NCBI GenBank assembly: GCA_029251085.1
Contig: JAQXDZ010000102.1
Span: forward strand, 1 to 64,000
Length of the DNA: 64,000 nt
Source of the DNA: Mariniblastus sp.
GTDB taxonomy: Bacteria > Planctomycetota > Planctomycetia > Pirellulales > Pirellulaceae
Direction of reading: 5' to 3'
The notes beneath the pieces were generated by a model, which did no database searches, was not told where the DNA came from, and worked only from the letters and a program-made list of their open reading frames with translations. Made by a program: the position numbers and the translations under genes. Each line of letters begins with the position of its first letter. The first letter of the stretch is position 1. This document shows, one piece after another, positions 9,871 through 17,497 of this stretch.

Positions 9871-10842
9871 ATGTCGAACTCCCCCATTTCTGATTTCCTG
9901 GAACAGAATTTTCTGCATTTCAATGCGAGAGAGACAGTCGCTGCGGCACGCGGCTACAAACAGCATCTCGCTGGCGGCGGTAAAATGCTGGTCAGCTTGG
10001 CTGGGGCGATGAGTACTGCTGAACTCGGCATTTCTCTAGCCGAAATGATCCGCGCGGACAAAGTCCACGCCATCTCCTGCACCGGCGCTAACCTCGAAGA
10101 AGATGTCTTCAATTTAGTCGCCCACGATGAATATCGTGTCGTTCCGAACTATCGAGACCTTTCACCGAGTGACGAAACCGCACTTCTCAAAGAAGGGTTT
10201 AACCGAGTCACCGATACCTGTATTCCTGAAACCGTGATGCGGCATCTTGAAGGGAATTTCATGTCTCTCTGCGCCGAAAATGCCAACAAAGGAACAAGCC
10301 TGTTTCCCTTTGAGGTTTTTTACAAGCTATTTGAAACCGGTGTGCTCGAACCTCACTTCCAGATTGACCCATCCCACTCTTGGCTTTTGGCAGCTTTTGA
10401 AAAAAAGATACCGGTTTACTCACCGGGCTTCGAAGATTCAACGCTTGGAAATATTTTCGCTGCAAGGTGCATTGAAAAGAAAATTAAATCCCACCATGCT
10501 CTGCGGTCAGGGACGGAGCAAATGGAACACCTTGTCAACTGGTATCTAGAAACGGATGCCAACGCTCCCATTGGATTTTTTCAAATTGCTGGCGGGATTG
10601 CCGGAGACTTTGCAATCTGTGCGGTTCCAACGATCATTCAAGATTTAAAAAAAGACATCCGACTTTGGCAGTACTTCGCTCAAATCTCGGACTCAACCAC
10701 TTCCTACGGTTCTTACTCCGGCGCCGTACCGAATGAAAAAATCACCTGGTGCAAATTGGCTGCTGATACACCTCGGTTTATGATCAATTCCGATGCATCG
10801 ATTGTCGCGCCGTTAATCTTCGCTTACATCCTTGAGAAATAG
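9871..10842 (+). CDS. deoxyhypusine synthase-like protein
   Basis: The deoxyhypusine synthase family transfers the aminobutyl group of spermidine, through an enzyme lysine and NAD, either to eIF5A in eukaryotes and archaea or, in bacterial relatives, to putrescine to give homospermidine. This 323-residue protein shows the family pattern: VSLAGAMSTAELG near residue 42, CTGANLEEDVFN near 70, and near the C-terminus EKITWCK, where Lys295 aligns with the catalytic lysine of the family EAVSWGK motif. Bacteria have no eIF5A, so a polyamine role is more likely. Two genes for putrescine synthesis lie 15 kb downstream. It converges on the kinase-tubulin gene, 26 bases away. Confidence 0.85.
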   Translation: MSNSPISDFLEQNFLHFNARETVAAARGYKQHLAGGGKMLVSLAGAMSTAELGISLAEMIRADKVHAISCTGANLEEDVFNLVAHDEYRVVPNYRDLSPSDETALLKEGFNRVTDTCIPETVMRHLEGNFMSLCAENANKGTSLFPFEVFYKLFETGVLEPHFQIDPSHSWLLAAFEKKIPVYSPGFEDSTLGNIFAARCIEKKIKSHHALRSGTEQMEHLVNWYLETDANAPIGFFQIAGGIAGDFAICAVPTIIQDLKKDIRLWQYFAQISDSTTSYGSYSGAVPNEKITWCKLAADTPRFMINSDASIVAPLIFAYILEK

Positions 10843-10868: not shown

Positions 10869-13800
10869 CTAAAGCAATTCGTCAAGCGTCGACCAATCGA
10901 TATCATTTCTGGTATTAATCCGCTTTACTAATTCCGGCGCGTCAGGCTGACTCTCCAGCAAACGAAACGCAACATTGGCAAGCGGAACATCCTCACCTTC
11001 AAAACAGAGAACGAAGTTCCCTTGAGTCCCATTGACCGCGCAGTTCTTTAATTTGAATTTATTTTCCAATATCCTTGGCAGCATCGACTCACCGGATAAC
11101 ACCGGCATCCCAACCATCAACCGACAAGTACCGCCGCAATCATCAACCTCGGGTCTCGCTTCACGTATCCGATCTTTCACCCACTTCACTAATTGCTCGG
11201 GACCAATATTTTCTTTTTGAACTACATCATCCAAAGAAACTTTTTTATAAGCATTGGTGAGCACGCGCTGAGCTGAGGACCTAATTTGCTGAGGCAATTG
11301 ATTTCTCATCAGCGAGGCATCATTGAACACACTGACATAGTCGCCCCAATCTCGAATGAGTGATTGGTAGACCTGTAGTTCCGTTTTTAATATTTGTTGA
11401 TCGAGATCGCGATTGATACTCTCACTGAAGATCTGATTCATATTGAAATCGTCAGTTCTCTCTACCTCTTCAACTTCTTCGATGGATTCAAAATCAACCT
11501 GAATTTTCTCAAGTTTAATTCTAAACTTGTTAATCATTTCGCGAGTTGATTCTAATTCACGAGCCACGGTTCGGTAGTAAGAGGTGGTAAAACGCCGATA
11601 AAACTCAGTACACCTCGCATCACAGTAAGCGCTGACCGCCCGATCAAACCTCAGCTCAAACTCTTGACTCGATCGTGCTCGTTCGTCAGAAAACGGACGC
11701 AACTCATTCAGTTTGTTTCCTAAATCGGCACGATGCTTACGGATGGACTGTTTGAGTTTAACCTGAATGCCGTCGAGCCTCGCAAGCAGACAGTCAATTG
11801 CTTGTTGAGCTTTAAAAATATTCAGTTCCTGACTACTGACCATTTTATATATCTCAGCCTGCAGTAACTCTGCATCCTTCCCGGCCATTTGCTGAGTGAG
11901 TTCTTGCATCTCATGACAAACTTCCAGCCCCATGCCCTCGGCATTGATCGCGTCAGCAACGCCAAAAACACCATCTAGAAACTCTTGTATCGTTACTCGC
12001 GAATCAACCGACGTCGCTAAAACTATTTCTTTTGCGTCAGATACGATTGTCTCAATTTTTCCTTCGAATACTTCTTTTGCAACAACAGAAATTCGCTCGA
12101 CTAATTGAGATTCTCCCAAACCCGCCAGCTTCATCTGACGGTCAACAAATTCATTGGCGTTGAACTGCCTGCCGCGGTCACCGCCCAACCATCGAGAGAC
12201 CAATCCGCTTGCCACACGACCAACGGCGTCCTGTCCGGTTTTTGAACTCCCAGGACCTGTGGAACTCATACCAAAAGTTCTCAGGGAAAAGTGATCAAAT
12301 TCAGATTCGACATCTCGGCACTTATCCAAAAACTCTGCGCATCGCGAGGTGCTCGATAAATAAAGGTACTCCGCGACTTGATCAAGATTGTGATTAAATT
12401 CACTCTCCCGCAAATCATGCCCTAAATCATTGAAGTAGGTAAAATCAAAGGGTGGCTCATTTTCAAAATCAGGCAACCCGATCGTAGGATCTCCAGTAAA
12501 TCCACCCTCGACAAAATGTCGCATCTCCGTCAAAAATGAAATTGAATTCGCAGTCGAGAGCGTCGGATCTCGCTTCTGCTTGCAAGTCGAATGCAACAAA
12601 ATCCCCGAAAGCGTACTGGAAGCAATGTTGTTTTCATTCATCAGTAGTCTGAGCGTGTAGGCCAGATCTAAAGCCATCCCACTCCCAACCCCTCCACTGA
12701 TTGAGGTCACCAGAAAAACCCGAGGCGATAATTCCCCAGGATCCATATTTAATTTATCTGCTGACTTTGCCAGATTTTCAACCGCCATGATTTTCCGCAG
12801 GCTCTCCTGAATGCGATTGCAAATCATGTCGAAGTGGTCTGCAAAAGCCAGCCTTCCAAGGGGACGCAATCCCTCTGTTTGCAGTGACCTTGGCACATTG
12901 TAAATCCAGCGTCGGCCCAACCAGGAAAGTAACGAATGTGTCCGGTCGCGATAAACTTCCGGCTTTCGCAAGGGAACGTCAATCACCTCGCTCACGCCTA
13001 ACGCACCACTAACACCAATGGCACATAATTCATTTAACGCCTGACGGTCGGTGTCGATTGCAAGGATCTCGGTCGATGGTAAATCCGCAAGATCTCCATG
13101 CCGACACCCAATTTGCTTTTTTAATTTGTGAGCAATTCGATTAGCGGTTGCCCCAATCGTGACCACTAGAGTTGGTCGCAATGTCGCCTGTTGAGGGTTG
13201 CAATCCGGTGGCCCCAGTGATTTCAGTGCAGTTCCCTTGTACGGCAACCCCATTCCGGAAAGCGTCGGTGTGACCTGCTGACTATTATTAGAACCCGGCA
13301 AGGTCATGGTGTTCGAATCAACATCGAGATGAATATCTGATCGACGAATCGACTTTTTGACCGTTCTCTTCTTATTGACTAACTCGTTAATAAAATCGCG
13401 GCAATTGGAGTAGCGAAGCGTTGGGTCTTTGGAAAGTGCTTTGGCAACAATCAGCTGATCACCTTTAGGTAATTGCCTCAGGTTAGGTTTTCCATGGAGA
13501 TGCTGCGCTGCAAGTTGGGCGGGCGTGTTGCCTGGAAAGGGACGGGTGCCGGTAAGCATTTCCTGATAGACAATTGCCAAGGAGTACTGATCACTATGCA
13601 TACCCGGACAGCCGTCGAATAACTCCGGTGCGGCATACGCCGGCGTCATCCCGGACATCAGTGAATGAGAACCAGCTTCTAGGTCTTTTATCAATCCAAA
13701 ATCGGCGACCTTTACGTGATCTCCAACTAAAAGTAAGTTTTCCGGTTTAATGTCGAGATGCTGGAGCGAGTGCTCTTCACGCATGTAATCAAGAGCTTCT

Positions 13801-14222
13801 GCAACTCCGCGGAGGTAACGCAGCACCGACGCTCTGGGAATTCCCAACTGCCCTTTCGCCGTGTATTCGTCGAATGCCTCAGCAAGGCTCTTGTCAGCTA
13901 ATTCCGAGACCACCACTAATTGGCCTTCGAAAACCTCGATTCTCTCAAGTGAAAGCAGAAACGGATGCCTCAATGCCTTGACTCGATCGAGTGCCTTCAG
14001 TTCCGACTGTGCACGTTTTTCATCATGAAACCCATAGATGATTTTCAACGCCTTTGAGAGCCCACCCGGCGCAACGGCTGACCAAACCTCACCAAACCCG
14101 CCGGTACCAATCCGATCCTGAAGCGTGTAGCCGAGAATGTCGCGTTGAGATTCTAGTCGTTCAGATTTCAAAGGATTCCCTTTACCGAAATTTCGCCGTT
14201 CTAAGCAGAGTTCGATTACCAA
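10869..14222 (-). CDS. Ser/Thr protein kinase fused to FtsZ/tubulin-like GTPase domain
   Basis: Residues 32-286 are a Hanks-type kinase: glycine loop GTGGFGEV (39-46), Lys60, HLDIKPEN (155-162; Leu replaces the Arg of HRD), DFG (174-176) and APE (198-200). A linker of about 60 residues leads to a tubulin/FtsZ-like domain: LVVTIGATANRIAHKL (352-367), ILAIDTDRQAL (386-396, like FtsZ NTDxQAL) and FLVTSISGGVGSGMALDL (503-520), whose SGGVGSG resembles the GGGTGTG nucleotide loop. The remaining 500 residues are long helices, probably coiled coil, with a compact C-terminal domain. No transmembrane helix is seen. The first codon is TTG; another TTG at 14171 has AAAGGG upstream and is equally likely. 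An AAA+ ATPase gene precedes it on the same strand (269-base gap). Confidence 0.87.
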   Translation of the reverse strand: MVIELCLERRNFGKGNPLKSERLESQRDILGYTLQDRIGTGGFGEVWSAVAPGGLSKALKIIYGFHDEKRAQSELKALDRVKALRHPFLLSLERIEVFEGQLVVVSELADKSLAEAFDEYTAKGQLGIPRASVLRYLRGVAEALDYMREEHSLQHLDIKPENLLLVGDHVKVADFGLIKDLEAGSHSLMSGMTPAYAAPELFDGCPGMHSDQYSLAIVYQEMLTGTRPFPGNTPAQLAAQHLHGKPNLRQLPKGDQLIVAKALSKDPTLRYSNCRDFINELVNKKRTVKKSIRRSDIHLDVDSNTMTLPGSNNSQQVTPTLSGMGLPYKGTALKSLGPPDCNPQQATLRPTLVVTIGATANRIAHKLKKQIGCRHGDLADLPSTEILAIDTDRQALNELCAIGVSGALGVSEVIDVPLRKPEVYRDRTHSLLSWLGRRWIYNVPRSLQTEGLRPLGRLAFADHFDMICNRIQESLRKIMAVENLAKSADKLNMDPGELSPRVFLVTSISGGVGSGMALDLAYTLRLLMNENNIASSTLSGILLHSTCKQKRDPTLSTANSISFLTEMRHFVEGGFTGDPTIGLPDFENEPPFDFTYFNDLGHDLRESEFNHNLDQVAEYLYLSSTSRCAEFLDKCRDVESEFDHFSLRTFGMSSTGPGSSKTGQDAVGRVASGLVSRWLGGDRGRQFNANEFVDRQMKLAGLGESQLVERISVVAKEVFEGKIETIVSDAKEIVLATSVDSRVTIQEFLDGVFGVADAINAEGMGLEVCHEMQELTQQMAGKDAELLQAEIYKMVSSQELNIFKAQQAIDCLLARLDGIQVKLKQSIRKHRADLGNKLNELRPFSDERARSSQEFELRFDRAVSAYCDARCTEFYRRFTTSYYRTVARELESTREMINKFRIKLEKIQVDFESIEEVEEVERTDDFNMNQIFSESINRDLDQQILKTELQVYQSLIRDWGDYVSVFNDASLMRNQLPQQIRSSAQRVLTNAYKKVSLDDVVQKENIGPEQLVKWVKDRIREARPEVDDCGGTCRLMVGMPVLSGESMLPRILENKFKLKNCAVNGTQGNFVLCFEGEDVPLANVAFRLLESQPDAPELVKRINTRNDIDWSTLDELL

Positions 14223-14491
14223 GCGGCGGTTTTAAGCGTGCGAAGTATCTCGGAAAGGTAGCTTCTTGTTAGAAACTGAGTTGAAAACCGGCCAATATTC
14301 CCCCGAAAAACCACTGACCCCTCCAAAGAACTGGAACATCTGCTACGACTGTCGGACTTTTGGGCAAGCGCAAAGCGTCAGCCGAACGGGATCTCGCCAG
14401 CCTTCTGGGGAACGAATTATTTGAAAAACGCGGCCCGACAAGGCACTGCGGCATGAAACAGCGATTCGATTGAAACGCCCTGAGCGATCAC

Positions 14492-15820
14492 TTAATCCTT
14501 GCTTAGAACGTCCGTAAAATAGCTTTTGACGACTCGGTCAAAATATTCTGGACGAATTTCGACAGGCAACTCATTGTAAGCGCAGAAATTTCTAATCTGC
14601 GTCAAAAGATCTCTCGGATGGCACCGCCTCAACCGCCGTGAGGCCAAGGTGAAATGCGTCTGAATCAGATAATCAACTGCCTCAACGTTATACTCAAACC
14701 CTAATTTCTCGCAATAAATTTCAAACAAGACATGAAATTCTTTGGTGGAAGGATCGCTAATCTCAATCTTGTACGGAATCCGGCGAAGAAACGCTTCGTC
14801 TACCAAATCACTCGGCTCGAGGTTCGTCGAAAAAATAATCAACTGCTCAAAGGGCACCATTATTTTCTTGCCCGTTGCCAATTTGAGAAAGTCAACTCGA
14901 CTCTCCAGCGGGACGATCCAGCGGTTTAACAATTCTTGAGGCTCAATTCGCTGGCGTCCAAAATCATCGATCAAAAGACAACCGCAATTACTTTTCATCT
15001 GCAGCGAAGCTTCACTGACGTTGCTGTTAGCATTGTATCGAATCTCCAGCGAATCCATTGTTAATTCACCGCCAACGACGACTGTCGGCCTACGTATTTT
15101 AACCCAGCGTTTGTCGTAGGCGGCATCATGAATCAGTGAATTAGAGTCGTCTTGCGCAGGTTTATGATAAGCAGCATCGAAAAATTTGATGATGTGACCA
15201 TCTTCATAAATCGCATGCGGAACCCAGATTTCATTGCCAAAACATCGGGTTATTCGATGAGCCAGCGTCGATTTTCCATTCCCTGGCTCTCCATACAGAA
15301 ATAAACCGGCGCCCGAATTTATCGCGGGACCGAGGTTCTCAAACAGCGCCTCGTTAATCGAAATATCACCGAATGCGCTTCGAAGCTGTTTCCGCTTTGG
15401 TGACTCGGCCCGTATCGTTTGGGCTTCGGCGCTGAGTACATAGTCCATCAGAGGAACCGGAGCCGGGCCACCATAAGAACAATGCTGACTTGCAATCGCC
15501 GCCCGCTCGCGACCGCTTTCAGTCAAGGTATAACTGTAATCGTTTAGCGGTGCCGAGCCGTTATGGACAATTATTTGTCTCGATCGCAGTTGCCCAAACA
15601 GCTTTTGTAATACGCTAAACGGCAAACACAGATCATTAGAAAGCTGACGCCCGCTACTCATTCCTACAACAGCGAGCCGCTTGATCAACAAATTCTCAAT
15701 TAGCGAATTTGGCAAACTTGTTTCTGGTAGCGAATTAGGTTCGGAAGGACGAAATGACTCGTCGGCCAAAATGGTCGCGAGCAATCCGGAGCCCAAGCTT
15801 GGAGGGGTTTGAGTAAACAT
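14492..15820 (-). CDS. AAA+ ATPase with N-terminal winged-helix region
   Basis: A cytoplasmic 442-residue ATPase. Residues about 40-115 look like a winged-helix domain (LIKRLAVVGMSSGRQL, then YTLTESGRERA as in a wing). The AAA+ core has Walker A GEPGNGKS (177-184), Walker B LLIDDFG (282-288), sensor-1 IIFSTNL (328-334) and a DEAFLRRIPYK segment (341-351) that can supply the arginine finger. The family resembles MoxR/DnaC-like remodelling ATPases found beside signalling genes. It is transcribed towards the kinase-tubulin gene and away from the FHA-EAL gene, so it is probably part of one locus with them. A structural role in assembling or remodelling the tubulin-like protein is inference. Confidence 0.85.
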   Translation of the reverse strand: MFTQTPPSLGSGLLATILADESFRPSEPNSLPETSLPNSLIENLLIKRLAVVGMSSGRQLSNDLCLPFSVLQKLFGQLRSRQIIVHNGSAPLNDYSYTLTESGRERAAIASQHCSYGGPAPVPLMDYVLSAEAQTIRAESPKRKQLRSAFGDISINEALFENLGPAINSGAGLFLYGEPGNGKSTLAHRITRCFGNEIWVPHAIYEDGHIIKFFDAAYHKPAQDDSNSLIHDAAYDKRWVKIRRPTVVVGGELTMDSLEIRYNANSNVSEASLQMKSNCGCLLIDDFGRQRIEPQELLNRWIVPLESRVDFLKLATGKKIMVPFEQLIIFSTNLEPSDLVDEAFLRRIPYKIEISDPSTKEFHVLFEIYCEKLGFEYNVEAVDYLIQTHFTLASRRLRRCHPRDLLTQIRNFCAYNELPVEIRPEYFDRVVKSYFTDVLSKD

Positions 15821-16285
15821 GGCGATATCTCAAATTGCGAAAAAAGCATGTACCAGCTGATCTTTCGTGTATGAGAGCTTAATCGTCACCTAAGTGCCAA
15901 TTCTCGCAACGAATTCCAAAGGAACGATCTGGATGGATTTAAGCGATTCCGCCTCGACCGAAAAGGATGCAAAACTAGGATCAACTGACACCATCGCTAC
16001 AAACCATATATCCACCGCAAGATTTGCCGACTCCTCCGACCTATCCCGCGTTAACTGGGGAAAGCTTAGCAATTCATTTCTCGACCTTGAGGATTTTGTC
16101 TGTTTTGTTCCAACCGACCGTTTATTTAAAAGCTACAAATCCTTACAGAGAAGAAGGATGCCTCAAAAACCTCGGCCGGTACCACCAGTTAACGTGTCCG
16201 TGTTTGTTTCGTCGGTTGGAACAAATCACCTCACTTGGTTCCGGAAGACCGAATTATCCATTTACGATTTACACCAAGTCCACTC
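15821..16285. other. divergent regulatory region with long inverted repeat
   Basis: 465 bases between the divergent AAA+ and FHA-EAL genes. It must contain both promoters. The main structure is a 15-base perfect inverted repeat at 16104-16118 and 16211-16225, listed separately. A GTG-initiated frame at 15894-16289 has no recognisable domain and was not called. Confidence 0.45.
16104..16225. repeat. 15-base perfect inverted repeat, 92-base spacing
   Basis: The left arm (16104-16118) reads TTTGTTCCAACCGAC and the right arm (16211-16225) is its exact complement. It lies 61 bases before the FHA-EAL start. It could be two sites for one regulator that loops DNA, or an RNA stem in the leader. Confidence 0.6.
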
Positions 16286-17497
16286 ATGATCGACCTGAAT
16301 GCAATCAGCTCAAATTACCCTCAACAACAGGGAGAGTCGTCGAGCAACTGTCGTTGGTTTCTGACCGGGCAAATTGACCCTGAACAGCCTAACCGCCAAT
16401 TCCCAATCCATTCGACGCCATTTTCAGTTGGCCGAAGATCTGACTCATCGCTGCACTTGCCCGACGGATGCATTTCGAAAAATCATGCTGAGATCATCGT
16501 ATCGGACGATGGACGATTAATGTTGCGTGAATCTGGAAGCACCAATGGAACGTTCGTCAACGGTGAACAAATCTCTGGTGAAAGAGAAATTCAGGAAAAC
16601 GATCTTATTCACTTTGCCGCGCTAGTATTCCGCGTAGGCGTCCAACAGGAAAGTGCAACTTCTTATCACACCGTTCATGAGGACGTTTGTGATCAGGCAC
16701 TTGCGATGATTCAATTCGAAAAATTGATCAGCGATGGTGGACTTTATCCACACTTCCAACCGATCGTCCAACTCGAAGATCAGGCATTTGTCGGTTACGA
16801 AGTTCTTGGGCGTAGTCGGCTATTTGGCCTCCAAACGCCGTACGAGATGTTCCATGCCGCATCACAATTAAATATGGAATCTCAATTGAGTGAGGCCTTT
16901 CGGTTGCGTGGAGTTGAAATCGGAACTGCGTTCGGTCCAGACTCAAACCTCTTCGTCAATACACACCCGAAAGAACTTAACAATTCGGCACTCTACGATT
17001 CCCTTAAAGAAGTTCGCGAAGCGGCACCCGAGCAAAAAATCACGCTCGAAATTCATGAAGGGGCTGCGACCAATATGAACATGATGGGCGAACTTTGCTC
17101 AGTACTTAAAGACTTGAATATCATGCTGGCTTTTGACGATTTTGGCGTTGGAAAAGCTCGCCTCGTGGAACTTGGTGAAGTCCGCCCGGACTTTCTCAAA
17201 TTTGATATGAAGCTGACGAACAACATCGAACACGCCTCGATCAAACGCCAGGAATTAGTCGCTTTGTTTGCCACTCTCGTCAATAACCTCGGGATCCAAA
17301 CTCTTGCCGAGGGAGTCGAGACGCGGGAATGCCACGAAATTCTGGTCCAGATGGGATTCCAACTCGGTCAGGGTTACTACTACGGACGTCCCTCTCCGAT
17401 CTCGAAGTACGAACTCGAAATCGAGAAAAAAAGCGAGGATTCGCTGCGTGATTACCAGGATACCGAGTCAAGCTCGATCTTCACTCACGACGACTAA
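16286..17497 (+). CDS. FHA-EAL protein (phosphothreonine reader fused to c-di-GMP phosphodiesterase)
   Basis: Residues 45-120 are a forkhead-associated domain that binds phosphothreonine: VGRR (48-51), SKNHAEI (64-70) and GSTNGTFVNG (84-93). Residues 145-385 are an EAL domain that hydrolyses cyclic di-GMP. Key residues are present: Glu172 in YEVLGR (EVL instead of EAL), Asn225, Glu255, DDFG (284-287), Lys305 in FLKFD, Glu342 in AEGVE and Gln362 in GQGYYYG. It therefore looks catalytic, although the first motif is altered. The frame opens at 16235, but ATG at 16286 directly precedes conserved-looking sequence. It sits divergently beside the AAA+ and kinase-tubulin genes, making the kinase a candidate source of its phosphothreonine ligand. 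Confidence 0.9.
   Translation: MIDLNAISSNYPQQQGESSSNCRWFLTGQIDPEQPNRQFPIHSTPFSVGRRSDSSLHLPDGCISKNHAEIIVSDDGRLMLRESGSTNGTFVNGEQISGEREIQENDLIHFAALVFRVGVQQESATSYHTVHEDVCDQALAMIQFEKLISDGGLYPHFQPIVQLEDQAFVGYEVLGRSRLFGLQTPYEMFHAASQLNMESQLSEAFRLRGVEIGTAFGPDSNLFVNTHPKELNNSALYDSLKEVREAAPEQKITLEIHEGAATNMNMMGELCSVLKDLNIMLAFDDFGVGKARLVELGEVRPDFLKFDMKLTNNIEHASIKRQELVALFATLVNNLGIQTLAEGVETRECHEILVQMGFQLGQGYYYGRPSPISKYELEIEKKSEDSLRDYQDTESSSIFTHDD

What the first reader, a model, noticed from the sequence alone, without database searches (positions are those of the whole stretch)
10869..17497. Kinase-tubulin fusion, AAA+ ATPase and FHA-EAL protein in one locus
Seen: a Hanks-type kinase with a GTGGFGEV loop and DFG is fused to a domain whose NTDxQAL-like and SGGVGSG motifs match FtsZ/tubulin. 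An AAA+ ATPase precedes it on the same strand. Divergent from these is a protein with an FHA domain and an EAL domain. Known: FHA domains bind phosphothreonine, EAL domains hydrolyse c-di-GMP, and planctomycetes lack FtsZ. Inference: the kinase may phosphorylate targets read by the FHA-EAL protein, tying tubulin-like assembly to c-di-GMP. I know of no described system with this combination, but I could not search.
Basis: partly seen in the sequence, partly recalled or inferred. Interest (0 to 1): 0.75.

Follow-up and report, generated by a model that had tools for sequence, protein, structure and literature searches.

The report
Kinase-tubulin locus with cyclic-di-GMP partner
A planctomycete genome with no detectable FtsZ, like many of its relatives, keeps a protein kinase fused to a tubulin-like domain together with an ATPase and a protein that looks built to read phosphorylation and to degrade the messenger cyclic-di-GMP, which would wire a tubulin-like kinase to second-messenger signalling.

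Summary
Window 10869-17497 encodes a Hanks kinase fused to a Tubulin_2 (FtsZl1) domain ("KinTub"), an AAA+ ATPase with a winged-helix-like N-terminus, and a divergent FHA-EAL protein. The fusion is in print (Makarova & Koonin 2010; two later papers); I found no report of its partners. The genes travel together: a full-length FHA-EAL lies near KinTub in 90 of 126 loci; the locus-type AAA is in 38 of 60 genomes, all 38 with Tubulin_2, against 3 of the other 22. Five loci from two families form one-strand operons GGDEF - FHA-EAL - AAA - KinTub. FHA ligand residues are identical in 92 of 93 FHA-EALs; EAL catalytic residues are kept in 63 and largely lost in 30. Of those 30, 27 have a linked GGDEF-type protein with a dead motif (1-3 independent events, so no statistical claim). 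Best reading: KinTub assembles, phosphorylates threonines, the FHA docks there, and the EAL removes c-di-GMP locally. KinTub lacks FtsZ's T7 motif and Tubulin_2 is absent from 19 of 60 genomes, so it is not a replacement FtsZ. No biochemistry was tested.

The parts
10869..14222 (-). KinTub: Hanks-type kinase fused to Tubulin_2 (FtsZl1) domain, coiled coil and C-terminal domain, 1117 aa (TTG start as listed)
13365..14129 (-). kinase domain, residues 32-286; K60, D157 (HLD), D174 (DFG) kept
12300..13169 (-). Tubulin_2 domain, residues 352-641; glycine-rich SGGVGSG loop at 12678-12698
10872..12242 (-). helical/coiled-coil region and C-terminal beta-containing domain, residues 661-1117
   Evidence: AlphaFold2 model, mean pLDDT 84.7
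14492..15820 (-). AAA+ ATPase, 442 aa; winged-helix-like N-terminal part (residues about 38-113), P-loop GEPGNGKS (177-184); K183, D285, D286, N333, R346, R347 invariant in 32 aligned sequences
15821..16234 (.). region between the divergent AAA-KinTub and FHA-EAL genes (presumed promoters; not analysed)
   Evidence: coordinates
16235..17497 (+). FHA-EAL protein, 420 aa from TTG; an ATG 17 codons in (16286) may be the true start
16424..16615 (+). FHA domain, residues 64-127; G66 R67 S81 H84 S102 T103 N104 N109 present
16718..17392 (+). EAL domain, residues 162-386; the 12 catalytic or motif residues used as reference are those of a canonical EAL enzyme (roles recalled)

Best explanation
The three genes encode one signalling module. 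SHOWN: they are co-conserved and co-absent, the kinase residues and the glycine loop of the tubulin-like domain are intact, the FHA ligand site is nearly invariant, and the EAL of the window has the expected catalytic residues. INFERRED: KinTub binds GTP and oligomerises through its tubulin-like domain and coiled coil; bringing kinase domains together drives phosphorylation of threonines on KinTub itself or on the AAA protein; the FHA domain docks on that phosphothreonine; this places or switches on c-di-GMP hydrolysis by the EAL domain near the assembly. In five related loci the same operon also carries an intact GGDEF cyclase gene, so synthesis and breakdown sit together. The AAA+ ATPase most likely remodels or disassembles the assembly. 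In other loci the EAL and the linked GGDEF both look catalytically dead, so there the FHA-kinase link is kept and the nucleotide domains act as scaffolds or receptors. The output is probably a c-di-GMP-governed choice such as the swarmer-to-sessile switch (inference from planctomycete biology, recalled).
For: Linkage: AAA in 62 of 91 and an FHA-EAL-type cluster in up to 79 of 91 non-redundant KinTub loci; the next neighbour family reaches 20 of 91, 17 of them in the window's genus. In 126 loci a full-length FHA-EAL in 90; all 60 loci with an intact EAL also have an AAA match in the fetched stretch. Gene order and orientation vary. Co-absence: 38 of 38 genomes with the locus-type AAA have Tubulin_2 against 3 of 22 without it (Fisher 7.5e-13); G005, G011 and G026 lack all three. 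Four-gene one-strand operons: L064, L164/L206, L165, L166, L192. FHA residues identical in 92 of 93 FHA-EALs, EAL residues with 0-1 of 12 changed in 63 of 93. Kinase K60 in 127 of 128, D157 in 126 of 128, D174 in 127 of 128; G510 and G515 in 128 of 128. Seven GGDEF proteins with intact motifs in the window's genome, so c-di-GMP is probably made.
Against: No direct evidence of phosphorylation, FHA binding, GTP binding, polymerisation or c-di-GMP hydrolysis. 30 of 93 FHA-EALs have a dead EAL, so c-di-GMP breakdown is not the conserved core. 36 of 126 KinTub loci show no full-length FHA-EAL (some cut by contig ends or partial; 15 form a clade of paralogs from families f23, f24 and f26 with neither partner). 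Five dead-EAL genomes also carry a more window-like FHA-EAL elsewhere, so the locus copy may be a specialised paralog. FtsZ's T7 motif NxDxxD is absent (5 of 128 against 7 of 7 FtsZ), so GTP turnover like FtsZ's is doubtful. The FHA-EAL set was gathered with models that include the FHA, which favours finding FHA residues intact.
Confidence: 0.45

Rival explanations
1. The FHA-EAL is mainly a phosphothreonine-dependent adaptor or scaffold of KinTub; its nucleotide domain is an ancestral relic or a c-di-GMP sensor, and c-di-GMP turnover is incidental.
For: FHA residues identical in 92 of 93 while EAL residues are lost in 30 of 93; in 27 of these 30 loci the nearest linked GGDEF-type protein is dead too, yet both genes persist.
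Against: In 63 of 93, including the window, all or all but one of 12 EAL residues are kept over large divergence, which suggests selection for catalysis or at least for nucleotide binding.
Confidence: 0.25
2. KinTub is the FtsZ substitute of planctomycetes and the locus is a division machine regulated by c-di-GMP.
For: No FtsZ found in the genome; Tubulin_2 domain present.
Against: 19 of 60 genomes have no Tubulin_2 match, among them G005 (97% complete), G029, G037 and G038 (99%); no T7 motif; Makarova & Koonin judge a direct division role unlikely because FtsZl1 genomes typically also have FtsZ (section 6).
Confidence: 0.07
3. It is an anti-phage or conflict system (tubulin-containing GTPase systems of that kind are described in eLife 2020).
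For: Tubulin homologs occur in GTPase-centred conflict systems (PMC7159879, passages seen); the AAA matches PADLOC IetA weakly, E 5.4e-8, and NCBIfam IteA at 27.7 bits against a cut-off of 510.
Against: One Tubulin_2 match per genome in 39 of the 41 positive genomes, conserved linkage across the order and beyond, and a RecJ-type gene beside it in the window; the PADLOC kinase hits lie on the kinase domain; no vWA or HSP70 match in the seven window proteins scanned.
Confidence: 0.1
4. The genes are neighbours without a shared mechanism, kept by shared regulation.
For: In the window FHA-EAL is divergent from the other two, so only an upstream region is shared.
Against: Linkage persists with changed order and orientation, including co-directional operons, and the genes are absent together.
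Confidence: 0.1

Closest known systems
FtsZl1 family (Makarova & Koonin 2010; Pfam Tubulin_2 PF13809), including four planctomycete proteins with an N-terminal kinase
   Same: Same domain family and same fusion; FtsZ-like domain, coiled coil, mostly helical C-terminal region
   Different: The published operons have vWA proteins, predicted GTPases, kinases and OmpA-like proteins; here the partners are FHA-EAL, AAA and in some loci GGDEF proteins
FHA-regulated kinase pairs such as PknB-GarA or PknB-FhaA of actinobacteria (recalled)
   Same: Hanks kinase with an FHA protein that reads its phosphothreonine
   Different: Here the kinase is fused to a tubulin-like domain and the FHA to a c-di-GMP phosphodiesterase domain; binding not shown
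Paired GGDEF and EAL proteins, including degenerate ones acting as receptors (FimX- or LapD-like, recalled)
   Same: A cyclase-like and a phosphodiesterase-like domain in one locus, intact in some lineages and degenerate in others
   Different: Attached to a phosphothreonine reader and a kinase-tubulin rather than to pili or a periplasmic protease
Classical-clade AAA remodelers (spastin, Vps4/CdvC, p97; clade name recalled)
   Same: Best solved-structure sequence matches of the AAA profile, E 2.4e-5 for spastin
   Different: Matches cover only the P-loop part and a C-terminal stretch; winged-helix-like N-terminus; a specific relationship is not shown

Membership tests
FtsZl1 / Tubulin_2 (PF13809) | Tubulin_2 profile match above curated cut-off | tested here: met
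   88.2 bits against cut-off 27; 40 of 40 aligned sequences match at E up to 0.1
FtsZl1 / Tubulin_2 (PF13809) | FtsZ-like domain, coiled coil, helical C-terminal region | tested here: met
   secondary structure of the AlphaFold2 model, pLDDT 84.7; the C-terminal end also has strands
FtsZl1 / Tubulin_2 (PF13809) | vWA / GTPase / OmpA operon partners (typical, not universal) | tested here: not met
   none among the 7 window proteins scanned; neighbour clusters of 91 loci were listed but mostly not Pfam-scanned
FtsZ / tubulin proper (PF00091) | PF00091 above cut-off | tested here: not met
   12.9 bits against 33 for the window; 14 of 40 match at E up to 0.1, best 1.3e-4; hhalign with 7 FtsZ aligns the glycine loop at E 0.0017, probability 15%; no tubulin or FtsZ among 22 PDB-sequence matches up to E 10
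FtsZ / tubulin proper (PF00091) | T7 catalytic motif NxDxxD | tested here: not met
   5 of 128 KinTub (aligned residues 545-760) against 7 of 7 FtsZ
FtsZ / tubulin proper (PF00091) | GTP-dependent polymerisation | not testable with these tools
   -
Hanks-type kinase | catalytic Lys, HxD Asp, DFG Asp | tested here: met
   K60 127/128, D157 126/128, D174 127/128; Pkinase 40 of 40
EAL c-di-GMP phosphodiesterase | catalytic and metal-binding residues (positions recalled from RocR-type enzymes) | tested here: met
   present in the window; 63 of 93 with at most 1 of 12 changed, 30 of 93 with 6-12 changed
EAL c-di-GMP phosphodiesterase | hydrolysis of c-di-GMP | not testable with these tools
   -
FHA phosphothreonine reader | GR, SxxH and NG ligand-site residues (roles recalled) | tested here: met
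   identical at 8 positions in 92 of 93
AAA+ ATPase | Walker A, Walker B, sensor, arginine finger | tested here: inconclusive
   K183, D285, D286, N333, R346, R347 invariant in 32 (roles recalled), but no Pfam AAA model reaches its cut-off for the window and the structure model of this part is poor

The most novel reading that the evidence does not exclude
A tubulin-like kinase filament acts as the platform of a self-contained signalling unit in which phosphothreonine read-out is coupled to local synthesis and breakdown of c-di-GMP (GGDEF - FHA-EAL - AAA - KinTub), with the AAA+ ATPase as its remodeler. In other lineages the cyclase-like and the phosphodiesterase-like proteins both lost catalysis while the FHA-kinase link stayed, turning a second-messenger unit into a protein-only switch.
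Probability: 0.3. Interest if true: 0.85.

Novelty: new variant of a known kind. Interest (0 to 1): 0.62.

Why it matters
How bacteria without FtsZ organise their cells is an open question, and I found no assigned function for the FtsZl1 proteins described in 2010. The conserved partners give a concrete, testable role: phosphothreonine signalling tied to c-di-GMP. The natural series of intact and dead EAL/GGDEF versions would let one separate the enzymatic from the scaffold function by swapping orthologs in a tractable planctomycete.

Tried and rejected
Structure route to the tubulin fold: Foldseek showed 50 of 1995 PDB matches, all kinases, and 50 of 751 viral matches, nearly all named kinases (one carries another name, several have none). 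A profile of the tubulin part against PDB sequences gave no tubulin or FtsZ, only weak matches to the helical part. The order of strands and helices around residues 351-625, with the glycine loop between a strand and a helix, agrees with FtsZ topology as I recall it.

The AAA model is poor (mean pLDDT 54.1); only the N-terminal winged-helix-like part and the C-terminal helices are usable. No specific AAA family could be assigned.

FHA target search in the kinase-tubulin linker: all 125 linkers examined (of 128) contain Thr and 104 contain T-x-x-[DILV], too common to mean anything.

Co-degeneration of EAL and GGDEF: counting the nearest linked GGDEF-type gene, 27 loci are dead/dead, 6 intact/intact, none mixed. 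Against it: L039 has, beside the dead one, a second GGDEF gene with an intact motif; two of the six intact neighbours (L046, a GGDEF-EAL protein, and L121) are probably unrelated; the intact and the dead GGDEF proteins differ in architecture and may not be orthologs; and a tree needs only 3 changes of EAL state and yields 1-3 independent pairs, so no significance can be claimed.

Contexts of AAA paralogs (seven stretches of five genomes) gave no functional clue; domains of their neighbours were searched only with this locus's own models. The AAA ortholog cut (E 1e-190) was chosen after seeing the gap between 2.2e-195 and 3.1e-186 in the 60 genomes; it is less clean in the wider class set. Of the 60 genomes, 28 are of one genus; outside it the count is 14 of 14 against 3 of 18.
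Full report
WHAT IS THERE. The window lies in a genome of the Pirellulaceae type: the six closest named loci (86-93% identity over the tubulin part) are titled Mariniblastus sp., Pirellulaceae, Planctomycetaceae or Planctomycetota MAGs. The genome has 5.49 Mb in 171 contigs and is 92.67% complete. Three genes make up the finding: KinTub 10869-14222 (-), AAA 14492-15820 (-) and FHA-EAL 16235-17497 (+), the last divergent across a gap of 414 bases. Pfam gives Pkinase 9.3e-32, Tubulin_2 8.6e-25, EAL 8.8e-40 and FHA 2.1e-16. None of the three has a strong hydrophobic segment (maximum Kyte-Doolittle mean over 19 residues 1.48, 0.97 and 1.28), so all look cytoplasmic.

IS IT REALLY TUBULIN-LIKE. Tubulin_2 matches 40 of 40 aligned sequences, and the FtsZ/tubulin model PF00091 itself matches 14 of 40 at E up to 0.1, best 1.3e-4; for the window it reaches only 12.9 bits against a cut-off of 33. 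A profile from 128 KinTub sequences (100 rows after filtering) aligned to seven FtsZ proteins puts the glycine loop of KinTub on that of FtsZ, E 0.0017 but probability only 15%; shuffled columns, the AAA profile and the kinase profile gave E 0.79, 0.95 and 0.29. A profile search of PDB sequences found no tubulin or FtsZ. So it belongs to the superfamily through the known Tubulin_2 family, far from FtsZ itself. It lacks the FtsZ T7 motif NxDxxD (5 of 128 against 7 of 7 FtsZ). An AlphaFold2 model (pLDDT 84.7) shows kinase, disordered linker 286-327, alpha/beta domain, long helices and a small C-terminal alpha/beta part. Fold searches were swamped by kinases.

THE NEIGHBOURHOOD IS CONSERVED. Of 60 genomes (own included) 41 have Tubulin_2, 39 of them once. 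I fetched 42 neighbourhoods, 80 named loci (the best 80 of 161) and 40 further class- and phylum-level loci chosen by me from two searches. In 91 non-redundant KinTub loci of the first two sets plus the window, the AAA family is within 7 kb in 62 (61 on the KinTub strand), a cluster of FHA-EAL-type proteins in 79 (this cluster also took in GGDEF proteins by similarity; 76 of its 107 members match the FHA-EAL model), and the next family in 20, 17 of them in the window's genus. With the further set, 126 loci: intact-EAL FHA-EAL in 60, dead-EAL in 30, no full-length FHA-EAL in 36; an AAA match lies in the fetched stretch in 60 of 60, 14 of 30 and 8 of 36 of these. The 36 include loci cut by contig ends, partial FHA-EAL genes (L110, L127, L131, L145), one FHA-EAL missed by my gene caller but found by tblastn (L164/L206) and 15 sequences forming one clade from families f23, f24 and f26 without partners. 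The order of those unnamed families is not given by the tools; I guess Gemmatales.

CO-ABSENCE. The locus-type AAA (E up to 1e-190 against alignment A3) is in 38 of 60 genomes, and all 38 have Tubulin_2; of the 22 without it 3 do (G031, G035, G055; in G055 the match is weak, 6.5e-7) (Fisher 7.5e-13; outside the window's genus 14 of 14 against 3 of 18). Genomes are related, so these p-values overstate independence. In eight genomes (G010, G020, G030, G039, G044, G046, G050, G058) the AAA is present on another contig, or about 29 kb away (G020), rather than beside KinTub. In G010 and G020 FHA-EAL and AAA form a divergent pair away from KinTub. G005, G011 and G026 (94-97% complete) lack all three; G018 (88% complete) keeps only an FHA-EAL fragment. 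An AAA paralog is near universal in the class (173 of 198 genomes at E up to 1e-30), so only the locus-type copy is diagnostic.

TWO STATES OF THE EAL DOMAIN. In 93 FHA-EAL proteins (72, 21; two pairs share their C-terminus) the eight FHA positions G66 R67 S81 H84 S102 T103 N104 N109 are identical in 92; L183 has Ser for T103. The EAL positions checked (E189 L191 R193 N242 E272 E275 D301 D302 K322 E359 E362 Q379; roles recalled from RocR-type enzymes; the window sequence is the reference) have 0-1 changes in 63 and 6-12 changes in 30, with nothing between. Intact-EAL genes are divergent from KinTub in 43 of 48 loci of the first set but co-directional in 13 of 14 of the further set; dead-EAL genes are on the KinTub strand in 30 of 30, next to it. 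Five genomes with the dead copy also have a 41-47% identical FHA-EAL elsewhere (G030, G035, G039, G044, G050).

THE CYCLASE SIDE. In 27 of 30 dead-EAL loci, and in 3 loci without FHA-EAL, a gene matching my REC-GGDEF-CBS model stands on the other strand about 1.0-1.8 kb from KinTub, and its GGDEF motif is not intact (GSDRF, GENRF, GAGRF and the like). Pfam on six of them shows REC, GGDEF and CBS. L039 has a further, intact GGDEF gene nearby. In five loci of two families (L064; L164, L165, L166, L192) a GGDEF protein with intact motif and RSYD before it (RxxD inhibitory site, recalled) opens a one-strand operon GGDEF - FHA-EAL - AAA - KinTub with overlaps or gaps of at most about 275 bases, for instance L064 4283-5332, 5332-6582, 6598-7980, 7967-11236. 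The window has no GGDEF gene at the locus, but its genome has seven, all with intact motifs, and three EAL proteins including this one. On a FastTree of KinTub the EAL states need at least 3 changes, with a weak backbone; the concordance of dead EAL and dead GGDEF rests on 1-3 independent contrasts.

HOW IT PROBABLY WORKS. The FHA site and the kinase are the most constant features, next to an intact glycine loop in the tubulin-like domain. That points to a phosphothreonine made by KinTub and read by the FHA protein, with KinTub assembly as the trigger. In the window branch the read-out is c-di-GMP hydrolysis. In the operon loci synthesis and hydrolysis are both present. In the dead-EAL loci the read-out must be protein-protein. 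The AAA protein matches spastin, Vps4 and p97 sequences best, only over short stretches, hence my guess that it takes the assembly apart; its winged-helix-like N-terminus could instead bind DNA or a protein. All steps after the sequence evidence are inference.

COMPARISON WITH PRINT. Makarova & Koonin 2010 (PMC2875224: passages and section 6) described FtsZl1, four planctomycete kinase fusions, and vWA/GTPase/kinase/OmpA partners. PMC9871819 (passages) notes the planctomycete N-terminal kinase. PMC11032199 (passages) finds the tubulin-like domain the commonest partner among domains found solely in cytoplasmic kinases. PMC7159879 (12 of 15 passages) describes tubulin-containing GTPase conflict systems. 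PMC4672568 (passages) lists FtsZl1 in Gemmata massiliana. PMC6952346 (passages) showed nothing on this locus. I found no paper on an FHA-EAL or AAA association in searches (open-licence PMC only, listings seen; the possibly relevant Jogler 2012 paper is not held).

VERDICT. The fusion is known; the partner set appears undescribed in what I could search. Function remains inferred.

Noticed in passing
   Followed up: partly
L042:6374-8734 (+): The Tubulin_2 locus G035:C123, whose 1046-aa gene did not match the KinTub queries, has a neighbour with a DxSxS motif readable by eye (LDTSASM), suggesting the published vWA/FtsZl1 arrangement; not Pfam-scanned.
   Followed up: no
L039 and L119: Beside the dead GGDEF gene lies a second, related GGDEF gene of 552 aa with an intact GGEEF motif.
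   Followed up: no
class-wide, alignment A3: The AAA family of this locus is near universal in the class (173 of 198 genomes) with 1-4 matches per genome; function of the paralogs unknown.
   Followed up: partly
window 9871-10842 (+): A deoxyhypusine-synthase family gene (E 5.2e-37) ends 26 bases from the 3' end of KinTub, tail to tail; this neighbour family is near KinTub in 16 of 91 loci.
   Followed up: no
L179, L194, L195, L196, L197: In these loci the linked GGDEF-like protein aligns with a gap where the metal-binding motif region should be, an extreme pseudo-cyclase.
   Followed up: no
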